A stretch of 64,000 bases of DNA, taken from positions 2,594,001 through 2,658,000 of the forward strand of contig NZ_CP133217.1 in assembly GCF_030930995.1 (NCBI RefSeq), given 5' to 3'. Positions 12,401-63,532 of the stretch are shown piece after piece; positions within the stretch are counted from its first letter, which is position 1, and the number at the start of each line of letters is the position of its first letter. The stretch is from Thiothrix subterranea. Its GTDB lineage: Bacteria > Pseudomonadota > Gammaproteobacteria > Thiotrichales > Thiotrichaceae. The notes under the pieces are model-generated. The model was not told where the DNA came from, did no database searches, and was given only the letters and a program-made list of their open reading frames with translations. Both the position numbers and the translations under genes were made by a program.

Positions 12401-12837
12401 AATACGGCTGGGCAGCAGGCGACTTCGGGCAAGCCGACACCCTCGCCCGCGCCAAAGGCACATCCGTCGCCGGAGTCCACAGCGCAGGTGTGATCGAATC
12501 CGGCAGCGGCAAAGTCCGCCTGTTCAAATGGGCAGAATACCCCGGCGACTGGAACCCCGAAACCGACAACCGAATGCCCATCTGGGAAGCCACCCACCAC
12601 CTGATCCGCGCCCTCAACCAACAAGGCGAAACCGCCGCCGGAAACCTATTGGCACGAATGCCCACACGCGGCGAAGCCATCCGCCAACTCGCCTACCACC
12701 TCTACACCCTGTGCGAACGCAAAAAATGGGCAGACGATGCCCGCGCCTACAACGAACTCATCAGCGCCTGGAGCGCGATAGTCGCGGCATCGCTCGAAAG
12801 CGGGCATATTGATGAACAGATGGGAATGGGGTTTTGA
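9406..12837 (+). CDS. DUF1156 adenine-specific DNA methyltransferase with inserted DUF559 nuclease domain
   Basis: 1143-residue DUF1156 (COG1743-type) N6-adenine methyltransferase. The N-terminal DUF1156 signature reads [12 protein letters not shown] and [15 protein letters not shown]. The SAM-binding motif is [15 protein letters not shown] (about 141-155) and the catalytic motif is DPPYYDNI (about 735). The C-terminal half is the usual DUF1156 tail. Four copies of a 40-bp GC-rich repeat are translated in frame, at about residues 306-319, 468-481, 600-613 and 915-928. The two middle copies bracket a complete DUF559 nuclease-like domain (about 488-599), with [16 protein letters not shown] and VLRFWNAEV. 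Without the insert, the flanking text [13 protein letters not shown]...[13 protein letters not shown] matches ordinary family spacing. The frame is intact, so methylation may persist, now with a nuclease domain attached. Base composition changes sharply along the gene. Confidence 0.88.
10321..10360 (+). repeat. GC-rich repeat copy R1 inside the DUF1156 gene
   Basis: Forward copy of the 40-bp element with core CCCTCCCCCCGCTGGG, translated as [13 protein letters not shown]-like text. Its right half differs from R3 in a few bases (CTGGGGGGAGGG for CTGGGTGGAGGG), which makes it self-complementary around CCCTCCCCCCGCTGGGGGGAGGG (two overlapping runs). Confidence 0.9.
10809..10848 (-). repeat. GC-rich repeat copy R2, left inverted repeat of the DUF559 cassette
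   Basis: Reverse-oriented copy. Its reverse complement matches R3 at 38 of 40 bases, the only difference being GA versus AG at positions 14-15. It lies just before the DUF559 segment. Confidence 0.92.
11205..11244 (+). repeat. GC-rich repeat copy R3, right inverted repeat of the DUF559 cassette
   Basis: Forward copy following the DUF559 segment, translated as [15 protein letters not shown]-like text. It pairs with R2 at 38/40 positions. Confidence 0.92.
12149..12188 (-). repeat. GC-rich repeat copy R4 inside the DUF1156 gene
   Basis: Reverse-oriented copy, about 36-37 of 40 identical to R3 in reverse complement, translated as [14 protein letters not shown]-like text. Downstream of it the gene switches to strongly C-ending codons. 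Confidence 0.9.
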
Positions 12838-12927
12838 TGAAGACCACGCGGGTTTTTGTCATTAGTAAATTCTTGCGTAAACTTGTATCATCAAAAATTA
12901 ACCCGTCATGAATGTAAGGAATGCCGC

Positions 12928-46005: not shown

Positions 46006-47532
46006 ATGAATATGAACAGTGTCAGCGTTCATACGTTCAATAAAACCTCCGTATCGAAACACGGACAATTACTCCTAGCTAGTATTGTAATGTCATCGTT
46101 GTTAACTGCTTGTGGCGGAAACAGCGGACCATCTGCGGAAGAAACGGCTGCCCGTGCAGCAGTAACTACTGCGCAATCAGCCGCAGCAGTAGCGGCGGTT
46201 GCGGCACAAGTAGCGGAAAAAGCAGCACAGGAGGAGGATAGTACCGCTGCTGCCAAGGCGGCGGCTGACGCTGCTGCTGCGGCAAAAACAGCAGCACAAG
46301 CATCGATATTGGCAGCGGAAAAAGCTGCTATTGATAAATCTGCTACCGATGAAGCAGATCAGGCAAAATTAGCCGCATCAGCCGCACAAGCATCAGCAGA
46401 CAAAGCGGCTGCCTCATCTGCTGCGGCGACACAAGCGGTGGCAGATAAAGCTGTTACTATTTCGATAAAACGCGAAGAGATTAATACGATTGCGGTTAAT
46501 ATTAGTAAAGAAGTGCAAGCTGCACAGTCAGCACGTACGAGTGCTGATAATGTATTACTACAGGCTGAACAACAAGCTAAAAATTATCCAGAAGTTGCAG
46601 AATCTCTTCGGCAAACTCAAACCTATGCTGCACAATCTGTGACAGAAGCCGAGAAAGCAGTGGCGGAAAAAACGCGGGTTGAAACCATCCAGACGGATGC
46701 CGCTAGTACAGAAACCGTAGCTGCTATTCAAGCATTGTTAACTCAGGCAAAAGCAGCAGAACAGGCGGCTAAGATTGCCCGTGAAGCTGCTGAAAAAGCG
46801 CTGCAATCTGCCCGTTCCGCTGCCAGCCAAGTGACGTCGGAAGTGGCGGCGGCAAAGGCAGCACGTCGTTACACAAAAATTGATCCGTTTGGCAATGAAT
46901 TACCACGAACTGCAAATTCATGGTCTTGTTTGAAAGATACGGAGACAGGTTTGATTTGGGAAATGAAAACCGACGATGGTGGCTTCAGAGATAAGGATTG
47001 GCGCTACAAACACATGCACAATTCTGGTGGTTACGCAGGCGTGACTGATCTGAATGGCAAGCTACTGTGCAATGGCATATTTTCTTGTGATCCATACAGT
47101 TACATTGATATGGTAAATCAGCAAGTAGGTTTATGTGGTAAAAGTAACTGGCGTCTACCTAAAATGGAAGAACTGGGTTCTATTGCCCAAATTAATGCAG
47201 ATGAGCGTCCTCCTCACATTGAGAGAAGTGTTTTTAAAGACCTTCCTGATGCTAAAGCGGCTTATTGTTCTGAAAACATGATTACCGATCCCAATCAATG
47301 TGGATATGGACCCGGTAGCAGTGTGACATACAATAGTGATGGACGTATTGAGTGCAACTACAAAGGTGTGGATTTTGGTAATGAATTTTTACCAAATTTG
47401 CCACATGATAAAGCGCACCTTGATCTCAGCATTGCTGTGGCATTGCGCCACTACGGTGAAGTGGGTGATGGAAAAGATTATCCTTATGGCACGGCTAATT
47501 GGCTTTGTAGCACTCGGTTAGTAACTAAGTAA
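46006..47532 (+). CDS. Alanine-rich lipoprotein with DUF1566 domain
   Basis: 508 residues. The lipoprotein signal ends in lipobox LTAC (cysteine about residue 36). An Ala/Glu/Lys/Gln-rich region (about 45-285) of heptad character predicts a long helical stalk or coiled coil. The C-terminal DUF1566 domain (about 300-505) has LKDTETGLIWEMKT, NWRLPKMEELGSI and a cysteine-rich stretch; it is related to C-type-lectin-like folds of surface proteins. Predicted outer-membrane-anchored stalk presenting a head domain. TAGGT lies 8 nt before ATG and a strong terminator follows. It converges on the giant adhesin gene. Confidence 0.82.
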   Translation: MNMNSVSVHTFNKTSVSKHGQLLLASIVMSSLLTACGGNSGPSAEETAARAAVTTAQSAAAVAAVAAQVAEKAAQEEDSTAAAKAAADAAAAAKTAAQASILAAEKAAIDKSATDEADQAKLAASAAQASADKAAASSAAATQAVADKAVTISIKREEINTIAVNISKEVQAAQSARTSADNVLLQAEQQAKNYPEVAESLRQTQTYAAQSVTEAEKAVAEKTRVETIQTDAASTETVAAIQALLTQAKAAEQAAKIAREAAEKALQSARSAASQVTSEVAAAKAARRYTKIDPFGNELPRTANSWSCLKDTETGLIWEMKTDDGGFRDKDWRYKHMHNSGGYAGVTDLNGKLLCNGIFSCDPYSYIDMVNQQVGLCGKSNWRLPKMEELGSIAQINADERPPHIERSVFKDLPDAKAAYCSENMITDPNQCGYGPGSSVTYNSDGRIECNYKGVDFGNEFLPNLPHDKAHLDLSIAVALRHYGEVGDGKDYPYGTANWLCSTRLVTK

Positions 47533-47597: not shown

Positions 47598-50500
47598 TTA
47601 TTGCAACCCACCTTTCACAATGTAGTTTGCCGCGAAACCATTATTGAGCGGATGCAGCAGGATATTACCCACCAACAGCGTGGTGTCATTGCCCGGCCCA
47701 GTAAACAACGTTTTGCCATCAAAGTTGATGTCGGTGTTGATGTAGCCCGTTAGGATATGGTTGGTATTGCTTTGCGTATTATCGCCAGCAGTAATCACGC
47801 GCCCTAGCAGGCTGGTAACATCATTGTTTGGACCATTAGCGCTTAAGGTGTTGCTTACATTAATATCACCAGCCCACATTAGTGCTACCATGCCAGTAAT
47901 AATGCGGGTTTCATCGCCACTGACCACCATTGAACTTGAAGCGAAATTGAGCGCTTTCGCGGTGCTACTCAAGCTGATAGGGCTGGCACTTACCATGCCT
48001 AGGTGATTGCGGTGACGCACACTCACGTAGTAATTGCCTGCTTTAACCTTCGCAAAGTGCAACAGGTTAGAGCTGGTTTGCGAATCCACGACATCGCCAT
48101 CCCGTTGCAGAATCAGCGCTCGGCTGGCTACCACGGTATCAAGACCAGTACGCAATTCAACCAGTATCCAATCGACGACTGCATCGTTGCCCGCCATTTC
48201 TTGAACCATCGTGCTGAGTGTTTCAGTGCCAGCGTATTTAAACGGATCCGCCTGATACGGTTGTGTATTGGGCAATAAGCCTAAGGTATTCAAGGTGTCT
48301 ACCATCAATGCCGTTTTGCTGTCATAAGCACCTTGTAACATGGCACGCACGCTTACCGTCACACCATCATCGGCGGTGTTGTTGACGACACTCACTTTGA
48401 ACAGTTTACTGCTGCTTAAACCGCCGGTATCGGTAACGGCAATCTCCACTTCGTAAACGTTATCGCGGTTAGCATCCATCGGCGCGTCATAATCAGGCAT
48501 GACGCGGAAACGCAATAAGCCGGTGCTGGAGTCTATTTCAAAATTGGTACCGTCTGCGCCGCCGTTGATACGGTAGCTCAATTTGTCATTGGCATCGGAA
48601 TCTTGCGCTGCTACCGTCAATACCGTTTTACTGGTGTCTTCGGTGACGCTCAGGCTGGTGGTTGAGGTGATCGCGGGCGCTTCATTGGTATTCATTACCC
48701 GCACGCTGACATCGCGCACGTATTTTGCACCATCCACGGTGGTCGCCGTGATTTCCAAGTCATAGACGTTATCTTTATCGCTATCCATCGGTGATTCGTA
48801 ATTGCCCGGTGGCAAGGTCAGACTCGGTGGCGGCGCGGCGCGGGTATCAATTTCCGTACCATCAGCATCAGCCGATTTGGTAATGATGACGCTATTAACA
48901 ATAAATTTAACCGTTGCACAGTCTAAGGTCGCGCCGGGGGTCGGGTTGGTAATCGTGAAGAAGTTACCGTCGCTACCACCACTGATGACATAAGTAATGG
49001 GGTTGCCATTGGAATCTTTGGCTTCCAATAATTTGATCACCGTCGTTACATTGGTTTCATCAATGACCATATTGGTGCCGCTGGTCGTGTCATCAATCAG
49101 GCTGTCACAGACTTGGATGGTAATGCCATCTTTTATGCCGGAAAACTCCGACGTAGAACCATACGTGCTGGCGTCGATTTTCTGTGTCAGCGTAACGCTG
49201 ATGTAAGCACCTTGCGCCACGGTTATTGTGCTGTTGAGTGTGCCTTTGAAATTCAAGCTGCCAGTGCCGGGGTGACTGAGGTCTTTGCTGCCAATCAAGG
49301 TTTGGCCTTCACCATTGCCGGATGTGTCTTTGGCGGCGCTGGTAAAGAATTCAATACGGTAATCACCTGCCGCTACATCCAAGTTGAAGTCATACGTCAC
49401 AACCTTGGTGCCATTCGCGCCGAAAGAGTTAACTTTGACGTCTGGGTAATTGAGCAGATTATTGGGGCCAGAATCCGCATCACCGGCGTCATTAGCCGTT
49501 ACCCCGAAACCGTTCTCGTCGCCACCGACCAAATCAATACCCAACCCGGTATTGGCGTAAATGCTGTTACCGAGGAAGCTGTTATTGGTGGTTGCACCCT
49601 GTACATTGATGCCATCACCACTGAAATTGGTAATAGCGAGATTGAGGACTTGACTACCTGTGCTGCCAGTAACCAACGTTAAGCCATTGCCCGCACCACC
49701 GTTGCCATTCAATTGAATGACAGGAGCGGCGCTCGTGCTATTGAAAGTCGCTTGTTTGCTGCCATCCAACACCAGAGGTTTGTTGATGTCAGGCAATGCG
49801 CTGTTTAGGGTGATTTTCCAAACACCCGCGTTGTAATTCGGGTCGCTGGTGGACAGTTCTAAAATGGCGTTTTCTTTGCCAGCGGTGCGCCCAACTTGTG
49901 CCAGTGTCGCATCACCATCCAACAGGTTGGCGTTCAATAAGAATTGACGGAGTGAACCCGCGCCGCTGTCATTGGTGTTGGTCACGGTGTCGAAGTTGAA
50001 GCCGAAGTTGACATTGCTGAGATTGGCATTGCTCAACGTAATGGCTTGGCTGAATGCCGTGCTCGCGGTATTCACGCTGTTCACGCCGTCAGTACGGTAG
50101 GTGATAACCCCACGTTCTGAACCGTTGGAGCCGGGGCGGGTCGAGTGCACGCTGGTATTTACCGCTTGCACACTGTATGTACCTACGGGGATGTCGGTGA
50201 AAATGTAGCTACCATCGGCTGCTGTGGTGGCGGTGGCGAGTACGTTATTGCTGGCATCGCGTAGCTCGACGCTGGCACCACTGATACCCGTCATGCCAGC
50301 CGTTGCCGCATTGAACGCACGCCCATTGCCGCCACCGTAATTCACGTCTTCGTAGATTTTACCGGCAACATCGTACACTTCCAACAGCAGAACAGTGGGG
50401 GAGAATTCCGAAGTGCCGGAATTGCTGAGTGTGGCGGTGGCGGTCATGCTGTCACCCGTTACAAACCCTGCCGGAGTTGGAATGGTGACAGTGAAGGCGT

Positions 50501-53500
50501 TCATTCCGGTGTGGTTGTTGCCATCCGCGTCGGTGGCAATGGCGCACGTTGCGGTGTCGGTATCGCTGGCGCTGCCTTCCTCAAAGCTGGCAAGGTAGGT
50601 TTGGCCTTCACCGTAGTCTTTGGATTTGCCGAATTTGTTATCGCCCGGCGTGGCTTTGCCACCAGCGCTAACGTCGGCCTCAAACAGTTCTACGGTTGTT
50701 GCGCCCGCTATTCCTGCGGGTGCACAGCCTTTGATAATCAAGTTGCCACCACTTTCAGTGATATTAGCGAGTATGGGGAAGTTGAGCAGGTCGTTAGTGC
50801 CGGTGTCTGCATCATTGGCATCGTTCACGGTAATACCGTTACCACCGAGGTCAATGCCTAATTTGCCGTTGGCGTAGATTTTGTTGCCTAACATGCTGGT
50901 CGCTTTAGTGCCATCTGTGCCGCCGACTGTTATGCCATCCCCGCTATTGTAGGCAATCAGATTGCCTGCGCTACCGCTACCGCCGATTAAGTTTGGCCCT
51001 AAGGGGCTAATAACGGTGATGCCGCTATCGCCATTGCCACGGTTGATAGCGCCGGTTGGATCAGTACCGATGTAGTTTGAAGCAATCAGGTTGTTTTGAG
51101 ATTGCACCACTTGAATACCCGCCATTTTAAAGCGGTTGATCGCGAAGTATTTCACCGTGCTGCCATTAGTCGCGCCATTTAATGCAAGACCATTGGTGTA
51201 GTCTCCGGCGTTGCTGCCATTTAATTCAATGACAGGGCGGTTGGCGAAGGTGAATGCGGGAGCAGTCGTTCGCGCCGGTTGGGTAGAGGCATCGAGGATA
51301 ATGTCATTGCCCAGCGCGGGCAGGGCGCTTTGTACCGCGATGCTCCAATATTGGTTGGCGGCATTGTAGTTAAGGTCGCTGGTGGACAATTCCAAAATGG
51401 CATTGTCTTTGCCAGCGGTGCGCCCGGTTTGTGCCAGTGTGCTGTCGTTACCCAACAAGTTGGCGTTGAGGATGAACTGACGTAATGAACCTTGTCCGCT
51501 GTCATTGGTGTTGACGACGGTATTGAAGTTAAAGCCGAAGCTGGGTTCTTTAACTGGGTTGAATACCGGCCCTTTAAAGATGGGATCATCTTCGTCAATG
51601 CTGGCACTTTTAACCACACCACTTAAAATCGTGATCGGCTGTACCGACTGTGCTTGCGCCCCGCCAGAAAGCAGGAACGTGTTGGTATTCAGTGTTTGGT
51701 TCGTGGTATTTGCGGGTGCATCCGCACTGCTTGGTTTACGCCCACCAATTTCGTTGACGACATCGGTTGTGCCATCGGTACGGAAGGTTTGAATGCCACG
51801 TTCTGCACCACTAGAACCAGTACGGGTGGATTTGACCGTATCGTTGACGGCTCGCACGTAATACGCCCCATCGGTAACGCCAGTAAAGGTATAAATACCG
51901 CCAGTATCGGTGGTGGCGCTGTTTACAAAATTACCAGAAGCGTTATACAGCTCGACTCGTGAGCCCGCGATACCCACTGTGCCGGTTGTGCCAAATGGAC
52001 GACCTGCACCACCGCCGTAGTTCACGTCTTCAAAGATTTTACCCGTAAAGTCGCCGACTTCCTGTAACGTCAGGGTGGGTGAAAACTCAGACGTGCCAGA
52101 TGCAGCGAGGGTAGCCGTTGCCGTCAAGGTATCGCCGGTCACAAAACCTGCTGGCGTCGGGATGGTGACGCTGAAAGCTTTCATGCCGGTTTGGTTGTTG
52201 CCGTCAGCATCGGTTGCCAGTGCGCAGTTGGCAGCATCTGTATCGGCTGCACTGCCTTCGACAAAGCTGGCAAGATAGGTTTGGCCTTCACCGTAGTCTT
52301 TGCTCTTGCCAACTTTGTTGTCGCCCGGTATGGCTTTGCCGCCGGTGCTGACGTCGGCTTCAAACAGTTCCACACTTGCGCCAGCGGGGGCGCAGCCTTT
52401 CACGGTCAGGTTGCCGCTGGCAATACTGAGATCAGACATGAGCGGGAAATTGAGCAGGTTGTTTGCACCGGTATCAGCGTCGTTGGCATCGTTGACGGTA
52501 ACGCCGTTGTTGCCGAGGTCGATACCCAGATTACCATTGTTGTAAATGCTATTGCCGCTAATGACGTTGTTAATGTTGGTAGCGTTCGCCGCCAGTTTGA
52601 TGCCACCGCCGGTATTGTTGGCAATGGTGTTGGCTTGACCGGCTGCTGTACCACCGATCTGGTGATTGCTGGAGCCGCCATAGCTCATGATGCCGGGGCC
52701 GGTATTGCCAATGGCTTCGCCATTGATGCCTACTCCGATGCGATTGCCTCGGATGGTGTAACCACTGGTGAGGATAGAACCATTGGTAAAGCCGATTTGG
52801 ATGCCATCGCCTGCGTTGCCTGCAATGACGTTATCCAGCACCATACTGTCGTTAGCACTTTCTAGGTCAAGACCACCGGCTTGATTGCCCAGCGCAGCAG
52901 TACCGGTGACATTTGTGCCGATGAAGTTGTTTTGAATCGTGCCAGCGGTTGCGCCGGTATCGTAGGCGATACCCCAGCGCAAATTGCCGGAAATGATATT
53001 GCGTTTTGCAGGTGTCGTACCGCCGATAATGCTGGTAGCGGTATCGGCGTATTCCAGCATGATGCCCTGACCGTTGGCATCGGCAGTACCATCCGGTTTT
53101 ACCCCAACATAGTTGGATTCCACCACGGTACGCGCCGCTGCCACATTGATGGCACGGTTCATATTGCTGGTGCGGAAGCCGGTGATGGATAGGCCGCGTA
53201 CCGTGCTGTCCGGTGCGTTGTAGGCAATCGAAACCCCAAGGGCATCCAGTCCGGTAACGGGCGAGATGCGGATACGCGGGATGCCCGGCGTGCCTGCGGT
53301 GTAACCGGGTTGGGTTGTACCGTCAATAATTAAAGGAGCGGTAATGTCGGGCAGTTTGCTATTAACCGTAATGTTACAGGTTTTACCGCCACAAATATCC
53401 GCCCGTCCTTGCGGGTCGCCACTGGCTGGGATGTTGAAGACCAACACTTCCTTGCTCAAGGCCGTATTCACACCGTAATTGCTGTCCGGTTGCGCCATGC

Positions 53501-56500
53501 CGGTATTCGCTAACAGATTGGCATTGAAGATACCTTGGCGCAATGAACCTTGTCCGCTGTCATTGGTATTGACGACAGTGCTGAAGTTGAAGCCAAAGTT
53601 CGCGCCGGTAATGTCACTGCTTGCCATCGTTATCGGTTGCACGGATTGTGCCTGACCACCACCGGAGAGGGTGAAGGTAGCAGTGTTTAGTGTCTGGTTA
53701 GTGGTATTCGCGGCGGCATCAACCAGCGTAGGTTTACGGCCGCCGACTTCATTGTTTACGTCGGCTATACCATCGCTGCGGTGAGTTTGAATGGCGCGTT
53801 CTGCCGCTGTAGAGCCTGCACGGGTAGAGCGAACGGTGTCATTGACGACACGCACGTAATAATTACCAGCGGCAACATTTGTAAAGCTGTACGGGCCACC
53901 ATCAACGGTGGTCGTGCTGGTAACAAATGCGCCGGTTGAATCGTAGAGTTCTACGCGAACGCCAAGAATGCCAGCAATACCGGTGGTATTGAGCGGACGA
54001 CCAGTGCCACCACCGTAGTTCTTGTCTTCAAATACTTTGCCACTAATGTTCTTTGATGCGGAAGACGGATCACTTAAATTACAGATAGCTTGACGATTGG
54101 TCAGCGCACCCGTGGCAGCGGTGTATCCCCAGAACGGGGTATTTGTCCCCAGTTTATTGACCAGATCAACCACGGTGCTGGTACGTTGTACCCCATCAAA
54201 ATAGGTAGTCAGTGTTTTACTGGTGGGATTCCATGTAACGCGCAAGTCATGGTAAGCGTTGTTTTCAATATTACCCAAATCAACGGGGGCAGCCAGCTTG
54301 TTGGTGTTAGCGCTGTGGCGTCCATCGCCGTTAAGGTAAACAGCTAAATGGTCATTGCTTAGATCATTCCATCCAGCATCTATGTTGTGGTAGGTATCGA
54401 GTTCCACCACTAGCGAGGGGGAAATACCGTAATAATCCGTTGTACCTACGCCTGACCAAGTATCCGCAGAGCCAAGCCCGCGACCGTTTTGTCCAATGGC
54501 AGAGGCTCCGGTATTTTGCAGGGTAAAGGTCATGCCGTCAGCCCCGGCATCATCTGCGCCTACATAGACTCTGGCTTGCAGATCAAACGGCGCTGTAAGA
54601 TTAACGCGATTATTTCCCCAGAATGCGCCTTTTTGATTCGTTGTCGCATGGGTGAATTCAATTTCATTAGTGGGAAGAACGCTGGCATTGCCGACTGCTG
54701 CACCTGCTATTGGTAAACAAGCTTGCGTAGGCGTAGAACTAAATCCAAAGTCTAAACTGTGGTTGTTCTGTCCAGTATTACCAGCCGTAAAGCTAATAAC
54801 CGCGTTATTACCATTAATGACGGCATCCGAATCCCGAATATCCGTTTGGCTGTTGTTATCCGTTTTGCTGTCAGCATTTTGCGTGGTTAGGGTGTAAGTA
54901 TTGAGGCTGGTTTGCGTAGTGTTGACGCTCAAGCTACAGCTTTCACCGCTGCCCATGAAAGTGGCATTGCCGCCTGCTTTATTCGAGAAGTAGTATTCGC
55001 CTTGTGCATTGGTCGTAGCCGTGGCGTTATCCGCGCCGCAAGCCAGTGTGATGGTGACATTGGCGATGCCTGCTTCGTTTGCATCTTGCAGGCCGTCTTT
55101 GTCCGTATCCAGCCACACCCGGTTGCCCACCTCAACGGGGGAGGGATCACACAGCACTTCCAATTCACCCATGCCAGTACTTTTGCCGAGCGTTGACCAC
55201 GACACGTGGTAGCTATTGTCTTTAGCACCCGTGCGATTGTTTAACCACACCACGCCATTAGAACCCCAGCTATTTGCGTCATAAGCGGAAGCCAACACAT
55301 GTTCCTTACCCGGTGCAAGTGCTAAACCACCGGCGGCGATTTCATTCATGCCCTCCCAAGCATTATTGGATGGACCTAAATCGCCCCAGTAATATTCGTC
55401 GGTGGTTTTGCTGTTGGTGGCAATGGCGGTGCTACAACCCGGTTCAGAATCACTTAAATAGCCAGTATCGGTTTTGCACAAACGCAATACGTCCCCCATT
55501 GTGTCGACGTAATCAATCGTTGGATCACCACACGCGGGTTCGTCATACGAATTCGTGCCTTTTTGCAGACCCGCACGGTCAATAATCCCCACAATGATCG
55601 AGCCATCGGTATCAAATTCGAGGTTGCCCACGATGGGGGAATGGAATTGCGGGCGCACGTTGACAGCATCCGCTTGCGGCAACCAACCTGACCATTCGCC
55701 AATATTGGTATACCCAAAGCCACTGCGCGGTTGGTTAATGGCAAAATCTTTCACATGACTGAAACCAGCCGCTGTATTCGCGGGGTTAAAGCGCAATACA
55801 TAGCCTCGGACTTTACTTAAATTGTAAGGGTCAGTTGCAGCATCACACACACCGCCCACATACACATAACCTCGGTGGTATTTCACTGCCCAAGGGCGGA
55901 ATGTCCCGGAAGTACACGTGTAAGGCGAAGGCAGGTTGACCGTATAGCCACCCAGCACATTCGCTGCGGTGGGCGCGGTGCTAGGGCTGACATTGCCAAT
56001 CCCATAAAGCTTGCGGTCATTCAAATTGATTAGCCACAAACGGTTGTTGGGTTCGTCGTAGTCGATGTCACCCACCCCAACTTTGCCGACCTTATCCCAC
56101 GCGGCAACGTCGTGTGATGGCGACCAAGCACCCGTGGCAAGATTATTACAACTGTCAGTAGCCACGCGCACATCATTGCCGGTGTCGATACCAATCGCCC
56201 GCAAGTCAACGTAAGTGGATGCGCCGGTATAAGCCGCGTTAGGGTCAGTCATATCAACCTTGTAAATACCACCCGTACCTAATGTACCGAAACCACTGAA
56301 GCGCCGCATCGCCGCCGATGCATACAACGTCTTGGTGGTTTTCTGGTAAGCCAGCCCCCACAGTGCACCCGTTTGGCTGGTATTGGCTTTGGTAATCGCG
56401 GGTGGCGTTTGGTCATAAGCACCCCCTGTCGCATCGTAAGGGAACGTGAACAGGCTGGCATAGTTACCAATATCGGCAATGCTAGGGTTGCCGTTAACGA

Positions 56501-59500
56501 AGTTGAATGCCGCAACCGGCGGGATTGCTTGGCAATATTCGATCGGGTCACTGATGCCTAAGTTTGCCGCGCAACTGCCACTCGCGGTAACAAAACGCAC
56601 GGTACTCGCGGTATCCGTGCCTGCTGCACCGGGGTAAAGCCCGCTGGGTAAATTGGTGTATTCCAGCCGGTATTGTGTGCCATTCGTCAACCCGCTCAAG
56701 GTATACCAGCCGCGTGCATCCGTGGTAGCGGTAGCGGCTACCGCATTCGCACCGTTGTAAGCGGTAACAGTAATAGCCGCAATCCCTTCTTCCTGAGGTT
56801 CGCGTATCCCGTTTTGGTTGTAGTCGCGGAAGGCAATACCGCCAAACTGACCGGCACTGGCATTACAACCTAAATCAAACCCAAAATTCTGATTAGTCAG
56901 CGTGCTGCCTGCGCTAACAGTCACGTCAGCTAATGGATTGGTCGTACCAATCATGGCACTAGCCGGTAAATCAGCATCACGGGTATCCACTTCAAGCCGA
57001 TAACGTGGCGAGGGGCTGATATTGGCAAAACTGTAAGTGCCATTCGCGGCAGTACTGGTGGTCGCAACTTGGCTGTCATCGTTGGCATTCGCGGTCGTGC
57101 CATTATTGTCATACAGCATGAGCGAGACATTAGCCAAACCATTTTCTGTGCCAACATCGAAGGCATTATTGGCATTGGTATCGGCATACACCGTGCCGGA
57201 AATACTGCTATTGGGGCAGGCAGAAGCGGCGGCTACTGCCACATCATCAATGATTAGCTCGTTACCTTTGCGCTCATTTGGGAAGCCACTAACCGTACAC
57301 CAAGGCCCGGAAATCACGGAGTTGGGGTCACAGTAGCCACCATCCGTACCAATATGCCCGTAATTCACAAAGCGAATGGTGGAGGATGTACTGATGGCGG
57401 TAAATTCGATGCGGTATTTTTGAATACCTTCGCCTTCTCCCGGTGCTTTGAAATGCACCGAGCCGCTGGGCGTGTCTACCCGCATTATTCCCGCGTCCCA
57501 ATCCCCGCCTTCTGGCAGCGCAGAGAAGTACAAGCGATAACGTTGCCCAACGGTTGAGGCAAAAGTACGTGACAGGGTAACGGGTTCAGGCCCCCAGTCG
57601 GATTCATGGATATTCACGCCGGGGCTGACATCATCAGCGTTATCTCGCAGCTCTACCGCATCCGGTGGGCTGAGCATTCTACCGTTGCCATCAAATGCCA
57701 ATACGCCACCGGTATCGGGGTAAAATCGGCGCATCATGCCATTACCAAAGTAAATCGAGCGCCCTTGCGTTGCTGCAAACGGGGAAACTTCCACGGTACG
57801 CGCATAGGTATCGTTGCCGCCACCGGTGGCTGTCCAGTTGCGGATCACAAACGGTGTGGCAGACGTATTCGCGCCGAAATATTGTTCGCTGGCTAAATCA
57901 TCGAAGTTATCGGTAAAAATGGTGCTGCTACACGCTTGATTTTCACCCCGCACGATAGTTACATCGGGGCTATCCGGCGGCACATCAATGGCAACCGCAA
58001 TCGGATAGTCTTCCACTTCACCATTGCTGGCGTTGTTTGCGGGTGTGCTGGTGGTTACTGCGGCATCCGTGGTTAGGCGTAAACGTATGAAGGTAGTACC
58101 CAGTTTAATGTCGGTTGGGATACTGTTCCAAGTGAGCGTGACATTACCATTGGTGTTGTTAGGCACATTGACCGAAGCGGCTTCATCGGGGTTAAACACG
58201 CCATTGCCGTCAAAATCTATCCAGCCATACAATTTACCAGCATTGCCGGTGGTATTGGTGGTTCTGACATCGACACTGTAACTGGTCGCGGTCATTTTTA
58301 AGATCGGGAACAGCGCAATGTAAGGATTATTGTACTGGTTGGGTGAGCCGTCTTCATCCACCCCATCACCGATGGCGTTGTAACTGTATTGGCTGGCGGT
58401 TTCAGCATCCGGGCGGTTTTCACCTAAAAACAAGCTGTTCAGCGTCGTATGGCGAGCATCGCCGTAAGTGGCAGGCGCATCCCCAAAATCGTAGAAAGGT
58501 CCAGCGGAAATGGTTAGTTTGTGATCTTCAACTTCGCCGCTGGTCGCAGCACCGACAGATGTTTCCGCTTCTGCTCTGGTTTGGCTTAAACGTAAGCGTG
58601 CATAGGTTGTGCCCGCCGTTGTGCCAGCAGGAACGGTGAAGTTTGACAGCATGTAGCCGTTCCAATACACGTGTTGAGTATCCGCGCGTTCGCCTGCATC
58701 AAGGAAATCACCGTCACGGTTAAAGTCGATATAAGCGGTGAGGTAGGCCGTTGAACCGGTCTCATTTTTGACGTAAGTCGTTAGGGTGTAAGTTTGCCCC
58801 GTCGTGGTGGAAATGATGGCGGGGTTTTGCAAGCCATCTTCATCATCGGGACTGCCGCTGTTGTCATCGGCGTCGGCATTGGTGTTTTGCAACGTACCGC
58901 TATCGCCATCAATAGTGTTACCGATAGAAAGACTGGGGATTATGGTATGGCTTGCCCCACCATCTGACGCTAGGGTTTTGTAGTTACCCGCGCCTGTGTT
59001 AGCGGCAGTATCAGGCGCATCGCCATAGTCGGTGTTGCTGCTGGTAACGCAAGCCGATTCCAAAGCAACGACGACGTTATCAATCATGGGTTCGCTGGTT
59101 TTCGGTGTCGTGCTTAAGCCATCAATTGTACACCATGCTGTTGTCAGGGGATCACACCAGTTGTCGTCAATCGCCAAGCGGCTGTAGTTGACAAAGCTGA
59201 TGGTTGAGGTCGCTGCATTGGCAGTGAAATCCACTTGATAGAGGTAAGGACTGCCAGTGCCTGCGGGGGTTTGCAAGTGTACGGAACCGCTGGGCGTATC
59301 GACCCGCAGCATCCCGTTACGCCAGCCATTGCCATCATTTTCTGGCAATAATTCGAAATACAACCGATAGCGCTGCCCCACTGTCGTGTTGAGGGTGCGC
59401 GAGAGGCTGGGTGGGAATGGGCCCCAGTGTGAATCACCACTGGTTGTGTTGGGTGTTAAGTCATCGGCAATGTCGCGCAATTCAAGCGCTGTTGGGGGGG

Positions 59501-61883
59501 CAGTAATCACGCCGTTACTGTCGACACTGGGCGTATCGGATATGGCTGGAAAAATACGCCGAATGGCTCCGCTATCCATGTAAATAGACGTGCCATGAGT
59601 GGCGTTGTGCATGTTATCGGTACGATTGCGGGTGTCTGCCCCACCGCCACTGGCTACCCAGTTACGTATCGGGGTAGCGCCCGGACGGTTTTCTGCAAAA
59701 TACTGTCCGCCGGTCAAATCATTAAAGTTGTCGCTAAAGACGGTGGTGGTGCATGAGGTCGGTGTTGTACCTTTGGTAACACTGACGCTGGGGCTATTGG
59801 GGGGCAGGTTTAATGCAATCGCAATGGGGAAATCTTCCACTTCACCATTGCTGGCACTGCCGGTTGGGGTGCTGGTTGTTACCGCCGTATCCGTGGTCAG
59901 GCGCAGGCGGATAAAGCTTGTACCGGGTTTAATATCCGCAGGGATGCTGCTCCAGTTGAGGGTAACGCTGCTGTTGTTAGCGCCGGTGGGAACATTGACC
60001 GAAGTTGCCTCATCCGCTTCGAACGTGCCATTTTTATCGAAGTCGATCCAACCGTAGAGTTTACCTGCGGTTCCCGTGGTATTGGTGACGGAAAACGTGC
60101 TGCTGTAGCTGGTATCGTTTTGTTTTAGCAACGGAAAGCGTGTGATGCTGCTATTGGATGGCGCTTTGGGTGCGCCATCTTCATCAGCGCCATCACCACT
60201 GGCGTTGTGAGTGGGTTGACTGGCACTTTCTGAATCGGGCGCATTCGTGCCTAATTTAATTCCGGTGACAAGGCTATGGCTGGCATTGCCGTAAGTGGCG
60301 GGCGCATCCCCAAAGTCGCTACTGGTTGGTGTGTTAATACAGACCTGTGAATAGGCAACCCCGTCTACCCAGAACAAACTGGCTACCCGTAAAAACCTGA
60401 CATAACGAACGCCGCCAGCGGGTACAGTGACGGTTATCCGTGCAAGTTTATCCAGAGTAGCAGAACTTCCCAATGTACCGCTTGCGCCATAAGTACCCAC
60501 TGAGGTAAAGGTGGTGTTGTCCGCTGAAAATAGGATACTGACTTTGCTGGTCGACGTATCCTGGGCGAGTGAAAGTATTAGGCTGGAATTGGCAGGAATC
60601 GTTTGACCTAAATCCAGCGTAATGTGTGCGCCGTTTGTGCTTGGTATTTTCGCCGAGTTTGTCGTGGTGGATGCTGTGGTATTGGCGGCCGTCAGTGCGC
60701 CAGTCGCTAAGTTGGGTGAAGTGATCGTGCCGCTGCTGCTTTTTACGGTTGCCGCATTGCCGGATACGTCGCTGACGGATTGACCGGGGATTGGACACAA
60801 AGGTGCTGCAAAATTTTTGTAACTGGTCGAGCAAGCAGACGGCGCGTCTAACACGATTGGGCGAGCAAATGCGATGCGCTCAATATTGGTTGGTAGCGGC
60901 GATTGAACGTCAAAAAATTGCGAACCCGTTTGGGTTTCATCATAAAAATTGATTTTGTCGCTGGCGCTGTTGCCGGTAAAAGCACCTTGATTGCGGGTGT
61001 CCCCCGAAAAAATCATCGCGCCGCCACCGGTAAAGGTGCTGTTATTGAAAAAGTCTTTACCTGCAATTTTGGCACTGGAACCGTTGTGGAATGGCTGGTT
61101 ATTTTGCCATACGCCAGTGGGTGTGCCGGTTGCGGTAGTGATGAGAATAGTGCCCAGATTGTCCATCAGCGGGCTGTTGTTGTTGAATCCACCGTTAGAA
61201 ACCAAGGCGCAATAGTTACTGACATCCGAATTCGCGTTAATATTCATGAACGCCGTCGCATACACGCGCCCGTAGTTATCGAACTTACCATCGGGGTTGA
61301 AGTTACCGTTGACTTCCATGCGGTAATTATTCGTTAACGTTGTACCGTTTTGGGTATTAAAGTCTTGCGATGTGGTGAGCAAACCGTCGTTAATAAACGT
61401 AGAGTTATTGCCCAGTTGAAAACTGTTTGCCATCGTCATGGTGGCATTGGCGCGGTTGCGGAATGTCGTTGCGCCGTTGGTATTCAGGCCGCCAGTAAAA
61501 CTGAGCGTGCCGTAGTTGTCGATAACCGTGCCGCTGTTATAGGAAAATGTCTGTAAATTGGCAGTACCGTAGTTGGTTAAGGTGCCTGCCACATTGTTGA
61601 GATTGCCGGGCGTGAACGTCGCCCCTGTTTCCACGCAAATGCTGGCACCGCTGCCGAATTCTACCGTGCCGGTATACGTACCGCTGGCGATTTTGAGTGA
61701 TTGCCCCGACGTTAGGGTGTAATTGCTGCTGCCGCCCGTACTGGTTTGCGTGTATGTCGCCGTGCAGTTGGCAGCAAATGCTTGCCCTGTCAGCACAGTC
61801 AGTAACAATAATGCGAACAAGATTTGTAAGGAAAAACCAAGCGATCCATTGGCATAGCGACGTTTAGGCATTGAAATGTTCAT
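47598..61883 (-). CDS. Giant secreted modular adhesin (GEVED, SdrD-type, lectin, beta-helix, cadherin-like)
   Basis: 4761 residues in one frame. The signal peptide ends AFA near residue 37. Order from the N terminus: a repeat-rich beta-helical region (to about 515); three GEVED domains near 518-690, 948-1124 and 1131-1299, each ending GEVED(F/Y/H), alternating with two copies of a jelly-roll-like domain (SDNFNDLTGGQYF and TDNFDDLASEQYF); SdrD_B-type domains (about 1560-1775); a propeller-like region (about 1780-2245); SdrD_B (about 2250-2375); an L-type-lectin-like domain (about 2388-2605); three long units, each with an SdrD/Cna-B module (GKxxEDxNYGGG) and a NTNDSGQGSLRQ beta-helix; a cadherin-like domain (about 4400-4510); and a conserved C-terminal module. 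Probably exported for adhesion or sheath/biofilm structure. No membrane anchor is seen; the secretion route is unknown. Confidence 0.88.
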   Translation of the reverse strand: MNISMPKRRYANGSLGFSLQILFALLLLTVLTGQAFAANCTATYTQTSTGGSSNYTLTSGQSLKIASGTYTGTVEFGSGASICVETGATFTPGNLNNVAGTLTNYGTANLQTFSYNSGTVIDNYGTLSFTGGLNTNGATTFRNRANATMTMANSFQLGNNSTFINDGLLTTSQDFNTQNGTTLTNNYRMEVNGNFNPDGKFDNYGRVYATAFMNINANSDVSNYCALVSNGGFNNNSPLMDNLGTILITTATGTPTGVWQNNQPFHNGSSAKIAGKDFFNNSTFTGGGAMIFSGDTRNQGAFTGNSASDKINFYDETQTGSQFFDVQSPLPTNIERIAFARPIVLDAPSACSTSYKNFAAPLCPIPGQSVSDVSGNAATVKSSSGTITSPNLATGALTAANTTASTTTNSAKIPSTNGAHITLDLGQTIPANSSLILSLAQDTSTSKVSILFSADNTTFTSVGTYGASGTLGSSATLDKLARITVTVPAGGVRYVRFLRVASLFWVDGVAYSQVCINTPTSSDFGDAPATYGNASHSLVTGIKLGTNAPDSESASQPTHNASGDGADEDGAPKAPSNSSITRFPLLKQNDTSYSSTFSVTNTTGTAGKLYGWIDFDKNGTFEADEATSVNVPTGANNSSVTLNWSSIPADIKPGTSFIRLRLTTDTAVTTSTPTGSASNGEVEDFPIAIALNLPPNSPSVSVTKGTTPTSCTTTVFSDNFNDLTGGQYFAENRPGATPIRNWVASGGGADTRNRTDNMHNATHGTSIYMDSGAIRRIFPAISDTPSVDSNGVITAPPTALELRDIADDLTPNTTSGDSHWGPFPPSLSRTLNTTVGQRYRLYFELLPENDGNGWRNGMLRVDTPSGSVHLQTPAGTGSPYLYQVDFTANAATSTISFVNYSRLAIDDNWCDPLTTAWCTIDGLSTTPKTSEPMIDNVVVALESACVTSSNTDYGDAPDTAANTGAGNYKTLASDGGASHTIIPSLSIGNTIDGDSGTLQNTNADADDNSGSPDDEDGLQNPAIISTTTGQTYTLTTYVKNETGSTAYLTAYIDFNRDGDFLDAGERADTQHVYWNGYMLSNFTVPAGTTAGTTYARLRLSQTRAEAETSVGAATSGEVEDHKLTISAGPFYDFGDAPATYGDARHTTLNSLFLGENRPDAETASQYSYNAIGDGVDEDGSPNQYNNPYIALFPILKMTATSYSVDVRTTNTTGNAGKLYGWIDFDGNGVFNPDEAASVNVPNNTNGNVTLTWNSIPTDIKLGTTFIRLRLTTDAAVTTSTPANNASNGEVEDYPIAVAIDVPPDSPDVTIVRGENQACSSTIFTDNFDDLASEQYFGANTSATPFVIRNWTATGGGNDTYARTVEVSPFAATQGRSIYFGNGMMRRFYPDTGGVLAFDGNGRMLSPPDAVELRDNADDVSPGVNIHESDWGPEPVTLSRTFASTVGQRYRLYFSALPEGGDWDAGIMRVDTPSGSVHFKAPGEGEGIQKYRIEFTAISTSSTIRFVNYGHIGTDGGYCDPNSVISGPWCTVSGFPNERKGNELIIDDVAVAAASACPNSSISGTVYADTNANNAFDVGTENGLANVSLMLYDNNGTTANANDDSQVATTSTAANGTYSFANISPSPRYRLEVDTRDADLPASAMIGTTNPLADVTVSAGSTLTNQNFGFDLGCNASAGQFGGIAFRDYNQNGIREPQEEGIAAITVTAYNGANAVAATATTDARGWYTLSGLTNGTQYRLEYTNLPSGLYPGAAGTDTASTVRFVTASGSCAANLGISDPIEYCQAIPPVAAFNFVNGNPSIADIGNYASLFTFPYDATGGAYDQTPPAITKANTSQTGALWGLAYQKTTKTLYASAAMRRFSGFGTLGTGGIYKVDMTDPNAAYTGASTYVDLRAIGIDTGNDVRVATDSCNNLATGAWSPSHDVAAWDKVGKVGVGDIDYDEPNNRLWLINLNDRKLYGIGNVSPSTAPTAANVLGGYTVNLPSPYTCTSGTFRPWAVKYHRGYVYVGGVCDAATDPYNLSKVRGYVLRFNPANTAAGFSHVKDFAINQPRSGFGYTNIGEWSGWLPQADAVNVRPQFHSPIVGNLEFDTDGSIIVGIIDRAGLQKGTNSYDEPACGDPTIDYVDTMGDVLRLCKTDTGYLSDSEPGCSTAIATNSKTTDEYYWGDLGPSNNAWEGMNEIAAGGLALAPGKEHVLASAYDANSWGSNGVVWLNNRTGAKDNSYHVSWSTLGKSTGMGELEVLCDPSPVEVGNRVWLDTDKDGLQDANEAGIANVTITLACGADNATATTNAQGEYYFSNKAGGNATFMGSGESCSLSVNTTQTSLNTYTLTTQNADSKTDNNSQTDIRDSDAVINGNNAVISFTAGNTGQNNHSLDFGFSSTPTQACLPIAGAAVGNASVLPTNEIEFTHATTNQKGAFWGNNRVNLTAPFDLQARVYVGADDAGADGMTFTLQNTGASAIGQNGRGLGSADTWSGVGTTDYYGISPSLVVELDTYHNIDAGWNDLSNDHLAVYLNGDGRHSANTNKLAAPVDLGNIENNAYHDLRVTWNPTSKTLTTYFDGVQRTSTVVDLVNKLGTNTPFWGYTAATGALTNRQAICNLSDPSSASKNISGKVFEDKNYGGGTGRPLNTTGIAGILGVRVELYDSTGAFVTSTTTVDGGPYSFTNVAAGNYYVRVVNDTVRSTRAGSTAAERAIQTHRSDGIADVNNEVGGRKPTLVDAAANTTNQTLNTATFTLSGGGQAQSVQPITMASSDITGANFGFNFSTVVNTNDSGQGSLRQGIFNANLLANTGMAQPDSNYGVNTALSKEVLVFNIPASGDPQGRADICGGKTCNITVNSKLPDITAPLIIDGTTQPGYTAGTPGIPRIRISPVTGLDALGVSIAYNAPDSTVRGLSITGFRTSNMNRAINVAAARTVVESNYVGVKPDGTADANGQGIMLEYADTATSIIGGTTPAKRNIISGNLRWGIAYDTGATAGTIQNNFIGTNVTGTAALGNQAGGLDLESANDSMVLDNVIAGNAGDGIQIGFTNGSILTSGYTIRGNRIGVGINGEAIGNTGPGIMSYGGSSNHQIGGTAAGQANTIANNTGGGIKLAANATNINNVISGNSIYNNGNLGIDLGNNGVTVNDANDADTGANNLLNFPLMSDLSIASGNLTVKGCAPAGASVELFEADVSTGGKAIPGDNKVGKSKDYGEGQTYLASFVEGSAADTDAANCALATDADGNNQTGMKAFSVTIPTPAGFVTGDTLTATATLAASGTSEFSPTLTLQEVGDFTGKIFEDVNYGGGAGRPFGTTGTVGIAGSRVELYNASGNFVNSATTDTGGIYTFTGVTDGAYYVRAVNDTVKSTRTGSSGAERGIQTFRTDGTTDVVNEIGGRKPSSADAPANTTNQTLNTNTFLLSGGAQAQSVQPITILSGVVKSASIDEDDPIFKGPVFNPVKEPSFGFNFNTVVNTNDSGQGSLRQFILNANLLGNDSTLAQTGRTAGKDNAILELSTSDLNYNAANQYWSIAVQSALPALGNDIILDASTQPARTTAPAFTFANRPVIELNGSNAGDYTNGLALNGATNGSTVKYFAINRFKMAGIQVVQSQNNLIASNYIGTDPTGAINRGNGDSGITVISPLGPNLIGGSGSAGNLIAYNSGDGITVGGTDGTKATSMLGNKIYANGKLGIDLGGNGITVNDANDADTGTNDLLNFPILANITESGGNLIIKGCAPAGIAGATTVELFEADVSAGGKATPGDNKFGKSKDYGEGQTYLASFEEGSASDTDTATCAIATDADGNNHTGMNAFTVTIPTPAGFVTGDSMTATATLSNSGTSEFSPTVLLLEVYDVAGKIYEDVNYGGGNGRAFNAATAGMTGISGASVELRDASNNVLATATTAADGSYIFTDIPVGTYSVQAVNTSVHSTRPGSNGSERGVITYRTDGVNSVNTASTAFSQAITLSNANLSNVNFGFNFDTVTNTNDSGAGSLRQFLLNANLLDGDATLAQVGRTAGKENAILELSTSDPNYNAGVWKITLNSALPDINKPLVLDGSKQATFNSTSAAPVIQLNGNGGAGNGLTLVTGSTGSQVLNLAITNFSGDGINVQGATTNNSFLGNSIYANTGLGIDLVGGDENGFGVTANDAGDADSGPNNLLNYPDVKVNSFGANGTKVVTYDFNLDVAAGDYRIEFFTSAAKDTSGNGEGQTLIGSKDLSHPGTGSLNFKGTLNSTITVAQGAYISVTLTQKIDASTYGSTSEFSGIKDGITIQVCDSLIDDTTSGTNMVIDETNVTTVIKLLEAKDSNGNPITYVISGGSDGNFFTITNPTPGATLDCATVKFIVNSVIITKSADADGTEIDTRAAPPPSLTLPPGNYESPMDSDKDNVYDLEITATTVDGAKYVRDVSVRVMNTNEAPAITSTTSLSVTEDTSKTVLTVAAQDSDANDKLSYRINGGADGTNFEIDSSTGLLRFRVMPDYDAPMDANRDNVYEVEIAVTDTGGLSSSKLFKVSVVNNTADDGVTVSVRAMLQGAYDSKTALMVDTLNTLGLLPNTQPYQADPFKYAGTETLSTMVQEMAGNDAVVDWILVELRTGLDTVVASRALILQRDGDVVDSQTSSNLLHFAKVKAGNYYVSVRHRNHLGMVSASPISLSSTAKALNFASSSMVVSGDETRIITGMVALMWAGDINVSNTLSANGPNNDVTSLLGRVITAGDNTQSNTNHILTGYINTDINFDGKTLFTGPGNDTTLLVGNILLHPLNNGFAANYIVKGGLQ
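49090..50365 (-). repeat. Adhesin long unit 3
   Basis: Third, shorter and more diverged unit (GKIYEDVNYGGG) with NTNDSGAGSLRQFLLNANLL. It lacks the GGRKP stretch of the other two. Confidence 0.65.
50370..52045 (-). repeat. Adhesin long unit 2
   Basis: Second unit, same order as unit 1 (GKIFEDVNYGGG). The stretch GDNKFGKSKDYGEGQTYLASF is nearly the same in units 1 and 2. The shared segments 50365-50830 and 52045-52510 are roughly three-quarters identical by eye. Confidence 0.75.
52050..54045 (-). repeat. Adhesin long unit 1
   Basis: First of three related units. It begins with an SdrD/Cna-B-type module (GKVFEDKNYGGG), then GGRKPTLVDAAANTTNQTLN, NTNDSGQGSLRQ and a beta-helix with NNLLNFP, and ends with a VELFEADVS segment. 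Units 1 and 2 are clearly homologous at DNA level. Confidence 0.75.
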
Positions 61884-62100: not shown

Positions 62101-63049
<949 letters not shown>

Positions 63050-63053
<4 letters not shown>

Positions 63054-63532
63054 TGCGCATTGGGCATGGTTACGATGTACACGCCTTTACGACAGGCGAT
63101 CATCTGGTGTTGGGCGGTGTTAAGATCCCGCATACGCACGCTTTTAAAGCGCATTCGGATGGGGATGTGTTGTTGCACGCGATTTGTGATGCCTTATTGG
63201 GGGCGCTGGCGTTGGGTGATATTGGGCAACATTTCCCCGATACCGCCGCCGAATACGCTAACATTGATAGCCGAATTTTGTTGCGTCACGTCGTCGGACT
63301 GGTGCGCAGTCAAGGCTATGGCGTGATCAATCTTGATAGCACGATCATTGCGCAATCGCCTAAAATGGCACCGCATATTTTGACCATGCGCGAACACCTA
63401 GCGGTTGATTTGGGCTGTGAGCTGAATCAAGTCAATGTGAAAGCAACGACGACTGAAAAATTAGGTTTTACCGGGCGTAAGGAGGGCATCGCTGCCCATG
63501 CCGTGGTGTTATTAGGAGCAAACCATGATTGA
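63050..63532 (+). CDS. ispF: 2-C-methyl-D-erythritol 2,4-cyclodiphosphate synthase
   Basis: MEP pathway enzyme, 160 residues. The metal ligands are in [10 protein letters not shown] and the later conserved His in [24 protein letters not shown] and the C-terminal [17 protein letters not shown] are complete. Usually follows ispD; here it follows DUF2069 and no ispD is in the window. Confidence 0.95.

What the first reader, a model, noticed from the sequence alone, without database searches (positions are those of the whole stretch)
47598..61883. 4761-residue modular surface protein with no visible anchor
A single 14.3-kb frame with GEVED, jelly-roll, SdrD-type, L-type lectin, beta-helix and cadherin-like parts. 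The mix of sugar-binding and Ca-binding modules suits attachment or sheath building. The C-terminal GYINTDINFDGKTLFTGPGN module may be a secretion or docking tag.
Basis: partly seen in the sequence, partly recalled or inferred. Interest (0 to 1): 0.55.

Follow-up and report, generated by a model that had tools for sequence, protein, structure and literature searches.

The report
Giant surface protein with shared docking module
A sulfur bacterium makes a 4761-residue secreted protein whose last 256 residues are an undescribed module, shared by a whole set of its secreted proteins and probably used to hold them on the outside of the cell.

Summary
One intact frame (47598-61883, minus strand, 4761 aa) has a signal peptide and no visible anchor. 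I take the genome to be a Thiothrix. Four relatives lie on metagenomic viral contigs. No Pfam, NCBIfam or PDB entry describes the module: a beta-sandwich-like half, then a tandem 40-residue D-x-N-x-D-G repeat. Of 105 distinct copies examined, 100 end the protein; the other five form one clade and sit near the N-terminus, and some small proteins are little more than the module. So it is a position-tolerant domain, not a linear C-terminal tag: docking is favoured over secretion. Clues to a partner: an undescribed domain X occurs in 22 of 24 module genomes and 0 of 36 others, often encoded just downstream; exosortase H in 24 of 24 (and 9 of 36 others); a short module protein has a weakly cohesin-like domain. 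Binding was not tested and the fold was not resolved.

The parts
47598..61883 (-). whole gene, 4761-aa modular protein with signal peptide
61773..61883 (-). signal peptide, residues 1-37 (ends TVLTGQAFA; cut site by eye)
   Evidence: only strongly hydrophobic stretch of the protein
60390..60659 (-). F5/8 type C-like stretch, residues 409-498 (weak, under cut-off)
   Evidence: Pfam E 1.6e-4
59145..59408 (-). DUF642-like jelly-roll stretch, residues 826-913 (under cut-off)
   Evidence: Pfam E 1.3e-5
57999..58232 (-). GEVED domain, best of 3 stretches, residues 1218-1295
   Evidence: Pfam E 1.8e-37 for the protein
56616..56846 (-). SdrD_B domain, best of 6 stretches, residues 1680-1756
   Evidence: Pfam E 2e-58 for the protein
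55143..56516 (-). unassigned stretch, residues 1790-2247
   Evidence: no Pfam hit, no PDB sequence match at E<=1
54078..54695 (-). L-type lectin domain, residues 2397-2602
   Evidence: Pfam E 8.9e-42
52074..53576 (-). beta-helix-like repeats, about residues 2770-3270, by eye, no profile match
   Evidence: sequence
50139..50288 (-). CarboxypepD_reg-type stretch, best of 4, residues 3866-3915
   Evidence: Pfam E 6.1e-26 for the protein
48390..48653 (-). cadherin domain, residues 4411-4498
   Evidence: Pfam E 1.5e-10
47601..48368 (-). C-terminal module, residues 4506-4761, shared with 7 other proteins of the genome
47760..47885 (-). module repeat 1, protein residues 4667-4708
   Evidence: repeat 1 against repeat 2
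47622..47747 (-). module repeat 2, protein residues 4713-4754, holds TDINFDGKTLFTGPGND
   Evidence: repeat 1 against repeat 2

Best explanation
The gene encodes a secreted, modular adhesin or matrix protein of a Thiothrix. It carries a Sec signal peptide and probably leaves the cell by the type II secretion system. It is held outside not by a membrane anchor of its own but by its last 256 residues, a folded module that docks on a surface or matrix partner shared by the whole set of module proteins. The module has a CarboxypepD_reg/transthyretin-like beta-sandwich half with near-invariant VDW and HRNHL motifs, and a half made of two tandem D-x-N-x-D-G repeats that resemble dockerins without meeting their profile. 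The genome also makes giants of related build (GEVED, SdrD_B) that end in IPTL-CTERM and would be sorted by exosortase H, so the two tails look like two ways of staying on the surface. The best candidates for the partner are domain X and the cohesin-like domain of the short module proteins. Shown: the frame, the domains, the sharing, the position tolerance, the internal duplication, the co-occurrence and gene order. Inferred: folding as one module, docking, the partner, Ca binding, surface location and the export route.
For: 8 proteins in the genome carry the module. 100 of 105 distinct copies end within 25 residues of the stop; the other 5 lie near the N-terminus and form one clade, support 100/96. 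Small proteins of a hydrophobic N-terminal stretch plus module exist. The own N-terminal copy precedes IMPa/M60-type domains; two of the five have an HExGH motif in the same frame. The neighbouring protein of that kind (TH1243) has no module and shows instead a stretch I read by eye as F5/8C-like. The internal repeat is real: hhalign 98.6%, E 6e-16 (one target); the repeat-1 model finds 68 of 68 repeat-2 segments and 0 of 68 shuffled. IPTL-CTERM giant L119 shares GEVED (34.5% identity over 197 aa, E 1.4e-16) and SdrD_B stretches with the window protein. Two GspD genes over the cut-off. Domain X in 22 of 24 module genomes and 0 of 36 others. A small X gene begins 228-840 bases after a module end on the same strand in 18 of 25 cases, against 1 of 12 for longer X proteins. 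Exosortase H in 24 of 24 and 9 of 36.
Against: No fold: AlphaFold2 gave mean pLDDT 49 for the module (the beta-rich N half largely about 60-80) and 40 for the repeat half. No Pfam dockerin or cohesin over the cut-off in the genome, and no dockerin hit in the modules. The co-occurrences follow genus lines and are not independent events; exosortase H also occurs in 9 genomes without the module. The window's own gene has no X gene beside it. 100 of 105 C-terminal copies is also what a secretion signal would show. G411 has module proteins but no protein of the cohesin-like kind among its two matches.
Confidence: 0.5

Rival explanations
1. The module is a secretion signal: a folded domain recognised by the type II (or another) secretion machinery, in the way C-terminal domains serve T9SS cargo.
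For: 100 of 105 copies are C-terminal; many unlike proteins stand in front of it; two GspD genes over the cut-off.
Against: One clade carries it near the N-terminus. P. aeruginosa IMPa is described as T2SS cargo (PMC3953407, passages), while in a sample of 369 genomes of the class the module was found only in this family; P. aeruginosa itself was not searched, so that such a protease needs no module is an inference. T9SS: the tail model's one own-genome hit lies mid-protein, residues 2639-2684 of this protein, and SprA had no candidate, though its control was silent.
Confidence: 0.2
2. The module itself binds carbohydrate (sheath or substrate polysaccharide) rather than a protein partner: a CBM-like domain.
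For: The neighbouring M60-like protein without the module seems to have an F5/8C-like stretch instead (by eye); on viral contigs the module ends proteins with weak, under-cut-off beta-helix or rhamnogalacturonidase hits; the window protein has a lectin domain.
Against: The tandem D-x-N-x-D-G half and the tie to domain X are left unexplained; no carbohydrate-binding family among the module's Pfam hits at E<=10.
Confidence: 0.2
3. The module is only a stabilising cap of long extracellular proteins, without a partner.
For: It most often stands at the end, and it holds repeats of Ca-binding look.
Against: Small proteins of little more than the module, and N-terminal copies.
Confidence: 0.1

Closest known systems
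Dockerin type I (PF00404) and cohesin (PF00963)
   Same: Two tandem D-x-N-x-D-G loops each followed by a leucine-rich stretch, mostly at the protein's end, on many unlike proteins; the N domain of TH425-type proteins hits Cohesin in 2 of 10 (E 0.0026 and 0.0033). Such pairs are known outside cellulosomes, e.g. discussed for ANME archaea (PMC9012536, passages).
   Different: No dockerin profile match; repeat of about 40 residues with a longer loop than the canonical one (canonical length recalled); preceded by a beta-sandwich half; the Cohesin hits are under Pfam's cut-off and the own protein gives none.
IPTL-CTERM / exosortase H sorting
   Same: An alternative tail on giants of related build in the same genome; exosortase H in every module genome sampled.
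   Different: The module has no transmembrane helix and no sorting motif.
T9SS type A C-terminal domain (TIGR04183)
   Same: A C-terminal domain on many secreted modular proteins.
   Different: 10 bits, E 0.68 on the module; also near the N-terminus; no SprA candidate in the genome (control silent).
CarboxypepD_reg / transthyretin-like folds
   Same: N half: 1 of 9 members hits PF13620 at E 0.0085; weak Foldseek matches to carboxypeptidase D and hydroxyisourate hydrolase (E 0.076 and 0.12).
   Different: Covers only half of the module; VDW and HRNHL motifs are its own; no match at E<=0.001.

Membership tests
Dockerin type I | Pfam PF00404 profile match | tested here: not met
   own genome: one hit of 15.2 bits, under cut-off, in another gene; not among the hits of 9 modules or 5 repeat halves at E<=10
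Dockerin type I | duplicated Ca-loop plus helix | tested here: inconclusive
   duplication met; loop length differs (canonical form recalled); no confident fold
Dockerin type I | binds a cohesin | not testable with these tools
   only a weak cohesin-like domain in TH425-type proteins
T9SS C-terminal sorting domain | profile match over cut-off on the module | tested here: not met
   10 bits against 23, E 0.68
T9SS C-terminal sorting domain | T9SS translocon (SprA) in the genome | tested here: inconclusive
   no candidate, but no control genome rang either
T9SS C-terminal sorting domain | strictly C-terminal | tested here: not met
   5 of 105 copies are not C-terminal
IPTL-CTERM / PEP-CTERM | C-terminal motif with transmembrane helix | tested here: not met
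   no such Pfam or NCBIfam hit at 0.01; no hydrophobic segment
Sortase-anchored SdrD-type adhesin | LPXTG anchor | tested here: not met
   no LPxTG
Type I secreted RTX adhesin | no N-terminal signal peptide; RTX repeats | tested here: not met
   signal peptide present; no RTX family on the whole protein at E 0.01; chance-level RtxA_C hits in 1 of 9 modules (E 2.8) and 1 of 5 repeat halves (E 0.091)

The most novel reading that the evidence does not exclude
A cellulosome-like but non-cellulolytic docking system of sheathed sulfur bacteria: module-bearing adhesins and proteases dock on domain X and on cohesin-like domains, with exosortase-H-anchored X proteins (such as TH887: X, cadherin-like repeats, X, TSP3, IPTL-CTERM) as anchoring scaffolds, and with parts of it also carried by phages.
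Probability: 0.15. Interest if true: 0.78.

Novelty: new variant of a known kind. Interest (0 to 1): 0.5.

Why it matters
Thiothrix filaments have a sheath and form rosettes, and my searches (one Thiothrix genome paper looked into by term) showed no work on the genes behind that. A module carried by every sampled genome of the genus would give a direct list of candidate surface proteins and a testable partner. It also marks two domain families, the module and X, that Pfam does not describe.

Tried and rejected
T9SS tail: its one own-genome hit is in mid-protein in this same frame (window 53832-53969), by eye an SdrD_B-like domain; rejected. Dockerin and cohesin by whole-genome profile: none over cut-off. 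Phage and plasmid records: no tblastn match with the window module or with L033 proteins (phages, plasmids). Solved structures by sequence: none for the module or the 458-aa stretch; for X only four chance-level hits, E 0.3-1; for the TH425 N domain none with 7 rows and one at E 0.68 with 10 rows. X against the TH425 N domain by profile: unrelated. Chance-level Pfam hits not used: Ig_J, DUF2851, RtxA_C, G-gamma on modules, Orthopox_A36R on X, Big_7, Big_9, PPE-PPW, PEGA on TH425 N domains. Both structure models were poor, so the dockerin likeness rests on sequence alone. Further viral scans gave the same contigs again. The class and phylum searches scored at most 7 or 6 candidates in the own genome, so copy numbers there are capped. 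Literature: Thiothrix with sheath and surface protein 0 papers, with genome, adhesion and rosette 0, with genome, secretion system and sheath 3, listing only, with comparative genomics and filament 24, 12 listed; IPTL-CTERM 1, listing only; exosortase, PEP-CTERM and floc 9, listing only; XrtH with exosortase 0; dockerin/cohesin listings. PMC6390638 and PMC11557425 were searched by term and gave nothing of use (two passages each). I recall, without a call, that similar modules are common in Bacteroidota proteins annotated as hemagglutinins; I had no way to sample that phylum.

Full report
WHAT IS THERE. The frame at 47598-61883 on the minus strand is intact and 4761 aa long. It starts with a signal peptide (ending LLLLTVLTGQAFA) and has no other stretch of membrane-like hydrophobicity. 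Pfam confirms SdrD_B, GEVED, L-type lectin, CarboxypepD_reg and cadherin parts, with jelly-roll hits under their cut-offs. NCBIfam gave nothing at E 0.01. Downstream lies a convergent gene with an Lcl_C domain (46006-47532, plus strand) and then methionyl-tRNA synthetase (43769-45826, minus strand); upstream lie divergent genes with FMN reductase, DUF2069 and YgbB domains (62107-63532, plus strand). So the gene looks monocistronic.

WHERE IT COMES FROM. The window is C2:2594001-2658000 of a genome of 4.41 Mb in two contigs, completeness 100. A genome of the window's own genus (G415) has a contig of exactly that plasmid's length, 446480. I therefore take the organism to be a Thiothrix; no call names it.

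THE MODULE IN THIS GENOME. Residues 4506-4761 recur in 8 proteins, the window protein included; the seven others are 44-49% identical to it, E 1.3e-58 or better. By length they are 2107, 1759, 1308, 658, 425, 1451 and 1140 aa. Seven of the eight end in the module. In the 1140-aa protein it follows the signal peptide and is followed by IMPa_N_2, IMPa_helical and M60-like_N domains. Four of the eight lie in one cluster at C2:156-175 kb, which is followed by an 887-aa protein with the same domain X but an IPTL-CTERM tail.

DISTRIBUTION. With a profile of nine modules (A1), at E<=1e-5: 3 of 369 genomes of the class, all of the own family; 1 of 398 of the phylum, the own genome; 24 of 60 of the family, namely 13 of 13 of the genus, 8 of 9 of a second genus, 1 of 1 of a third (25 copies) and 2 of 3 of a fourth; none in the four other genera sampled (34 genomes). 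In viral contigs the module appears on three contigs and one duplicate: L033 (two adjacent small proteins), L061 with its duplicate L062, and L108. A tail-protein match beside the two small proteins on L033 (PHROGs, E 1.3e-26) supports phage origin for that one; for the others PHROGs gave only matches of unknown function or none. Hosts were not established.

ANATOMY OF THE MODULE. Over 69 copies, D66, W67, Y113, R120, N121, H122, F142, G179, D213 and G218 (module numbering) are invariant. The last third is a tandem repeat. With 68 of the 69 copies (one degenerate viral copy dropped), hhalign of repeat 1 against repeat 2 gives 98.6% and E 6e-16; the repeat-1 model finds 68 of 68 repeat-2 segments at E<=0.01 and 0 of 68 shuffled ones, and the reverse search 67 of 68 and 0 of 68. 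Pfam shows no dockerin in 9 modules or 5 repeat halves at E<=10; one of the 9 hits CarboxypepD_reg at E 0.0085; the remaining hits are at chance level. AlphaFold2 with five sequences gave mean pLDDT 49.4: the N half beta-rich and mostly about 60-80, the last 113 residues under 50. A second job on the repeat half gave 39.7. So the fold of the repeat half is open, and its dockerin likeness is a reading of the sequence.

POSITION. In 105 distinct copies, 100 end within 25 residues of the stop. The five others (L013, L054, L083, L090, L094) start 31-56 residues into their frames and form one clade with support 100/96. The 105 are those on fetched stretches with at least 191 aligned residues, out of 156 copies reported plus L015 and the viral ones; partial copies were dropped and a broken TH425 copy of G419 is counted. 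A crude signal-peptide test passed 3 of these 5 (L013, L083, L090); the other two have a hydrophobic stretch by eye. Two of the five have an HExGH motif in one frame with the module; in L094 such a motif lies nearby outside the module's frame, and in L090 and L140 (G384, the genome of L054) none was seen in frame. Several proteins of 308-333 aa in a second genus are little more than a hydrophobic N-terminus plus module (L132, L133, L134, L136; by eye). In the tree the window's module groups with those of other giants of the genus (G424, G375, G388, T. fructosivorans), and TH425-type, TH658-type and TH1451-type modules form their own clades, so the modules have mostly stayed with their proteins.

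TWO TAILS ON RELATED GIANTS. The genome has three IPTL-CTERM proteins, in frames of 2610, 6391 and 903 aa. The 2610-aa one shares GEVED (34.5% identity over 197 aa, E 1.4e-16) and SdrD_B stretches with the window protein, and the 6391-aa one SdrD_B stretches. Exosortase H (TIGR04177) is present in 24 of 24 module genomes and in 9 of 36 others.

DOMAIN X. A domain of about 163 residues without a Pfam or PDB match above chance occurs in the cluster alone (a 210-aa frame), before the module (TH1308, TH658), and twice on the IPTL-CTERM protein TH887. It is found in 22 of 60 family genomes, all among the 24 with the module; the two exceptions are 83% and 74% complete. A small X gene (frame 195-235 aa) starts 228-840 bases after a module end on the same strand in 18 of 25 cases, in one of which (G394) the module is a fragment; seven have none. 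Longer X proteins (242-288 aa) do so in 1 of 12. Presence follows genera, so the Fisher values printed are not independent evidence. The window's own gene has no X gene beside it.

THE COHESIN-LIKE LEAD. The N domain of TH425-type proteins hits Pfam Cohesin in 2 of 10 (E 0.0026 and 0.0033, 18 bits against a cut-off of 24.1, over positions 19-129 of 139). The own protein does not hit, and the others give Ig-like or no hits. It is not related to X by profile, and no cohesin turned up among solved structures. G411, of the same genus, shows only two module proteins, in frames of 1244 and 1082 aa, so the TH425 type is not a universal partner.

READING. Position tolerance, small proteins of little more than the module, and the exchange with another surface tail favour a docking or retention domain over a linear secretion tag. 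Export by Sec and T2SS is inferred from the signal peptide and two GspD genes over the cut-off; P. aeruginosa IMPa is described as T2SS cargo (PMC3953407, passages). Dockerin and cohesin proteins outside cellulosomes, also for surface attachment, are discussed for ANME archaea (PMC9012536, passages). Thiothrix filaments have a mucous sheath and form rosettes; the main text of that genome paper has no occurrence of secretion, adhesin or cadherin (PMC8570282, term search and passages).

Noticed in passing
window 27139-31734 (-): 1531-aa protein with AAA helicase and MTES_1575-type nuclease domains, in 2-kb windows of 45% GC against 51-53% on either side; looks like an acquired defence-type gene.
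   Followed up: partly
L120 (G000 C2:4015500-4035499): A 6391-residue open frame rich in SdrD_B-like stretches with an IPTL-CTERM tail.
   Followed up: partly
L010:4469-4945, 5111-5608, 9112-10128, 11068-11556, 12748-13233: Domain X, an undescribed domain of about 163 residues tied to the module by occurrence and gene order.
   Followed up: yes
L033:4854-6705, L061:362-4717, L108:4728-7460: Module proteins on metagenomic viral contigs: two small ones side by side, and two that end in the module behind beta-helix-like parts.
   Followed up: partly
L068 (G419 C1:2078000-2084000): The TH425-type gene is split over two frames in this genome.
   Followed up: no
G000 C2:154392-155656: Reverse-transcriptase-like protein split over two frames beside the module cluster, by eye a group II intron remnant.
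   Followed up: no
L015: The T. fructosivorans relative of this gene, which here lies on the 4.26-Mb contig, sits on a 446-kb plasmid, pTfr446.
   Followed up: no
G000 C2:463338-465733 (-): Two further, partly matching domain X frames away from the cluster, perhaps a broken copy.
   Followed up: no
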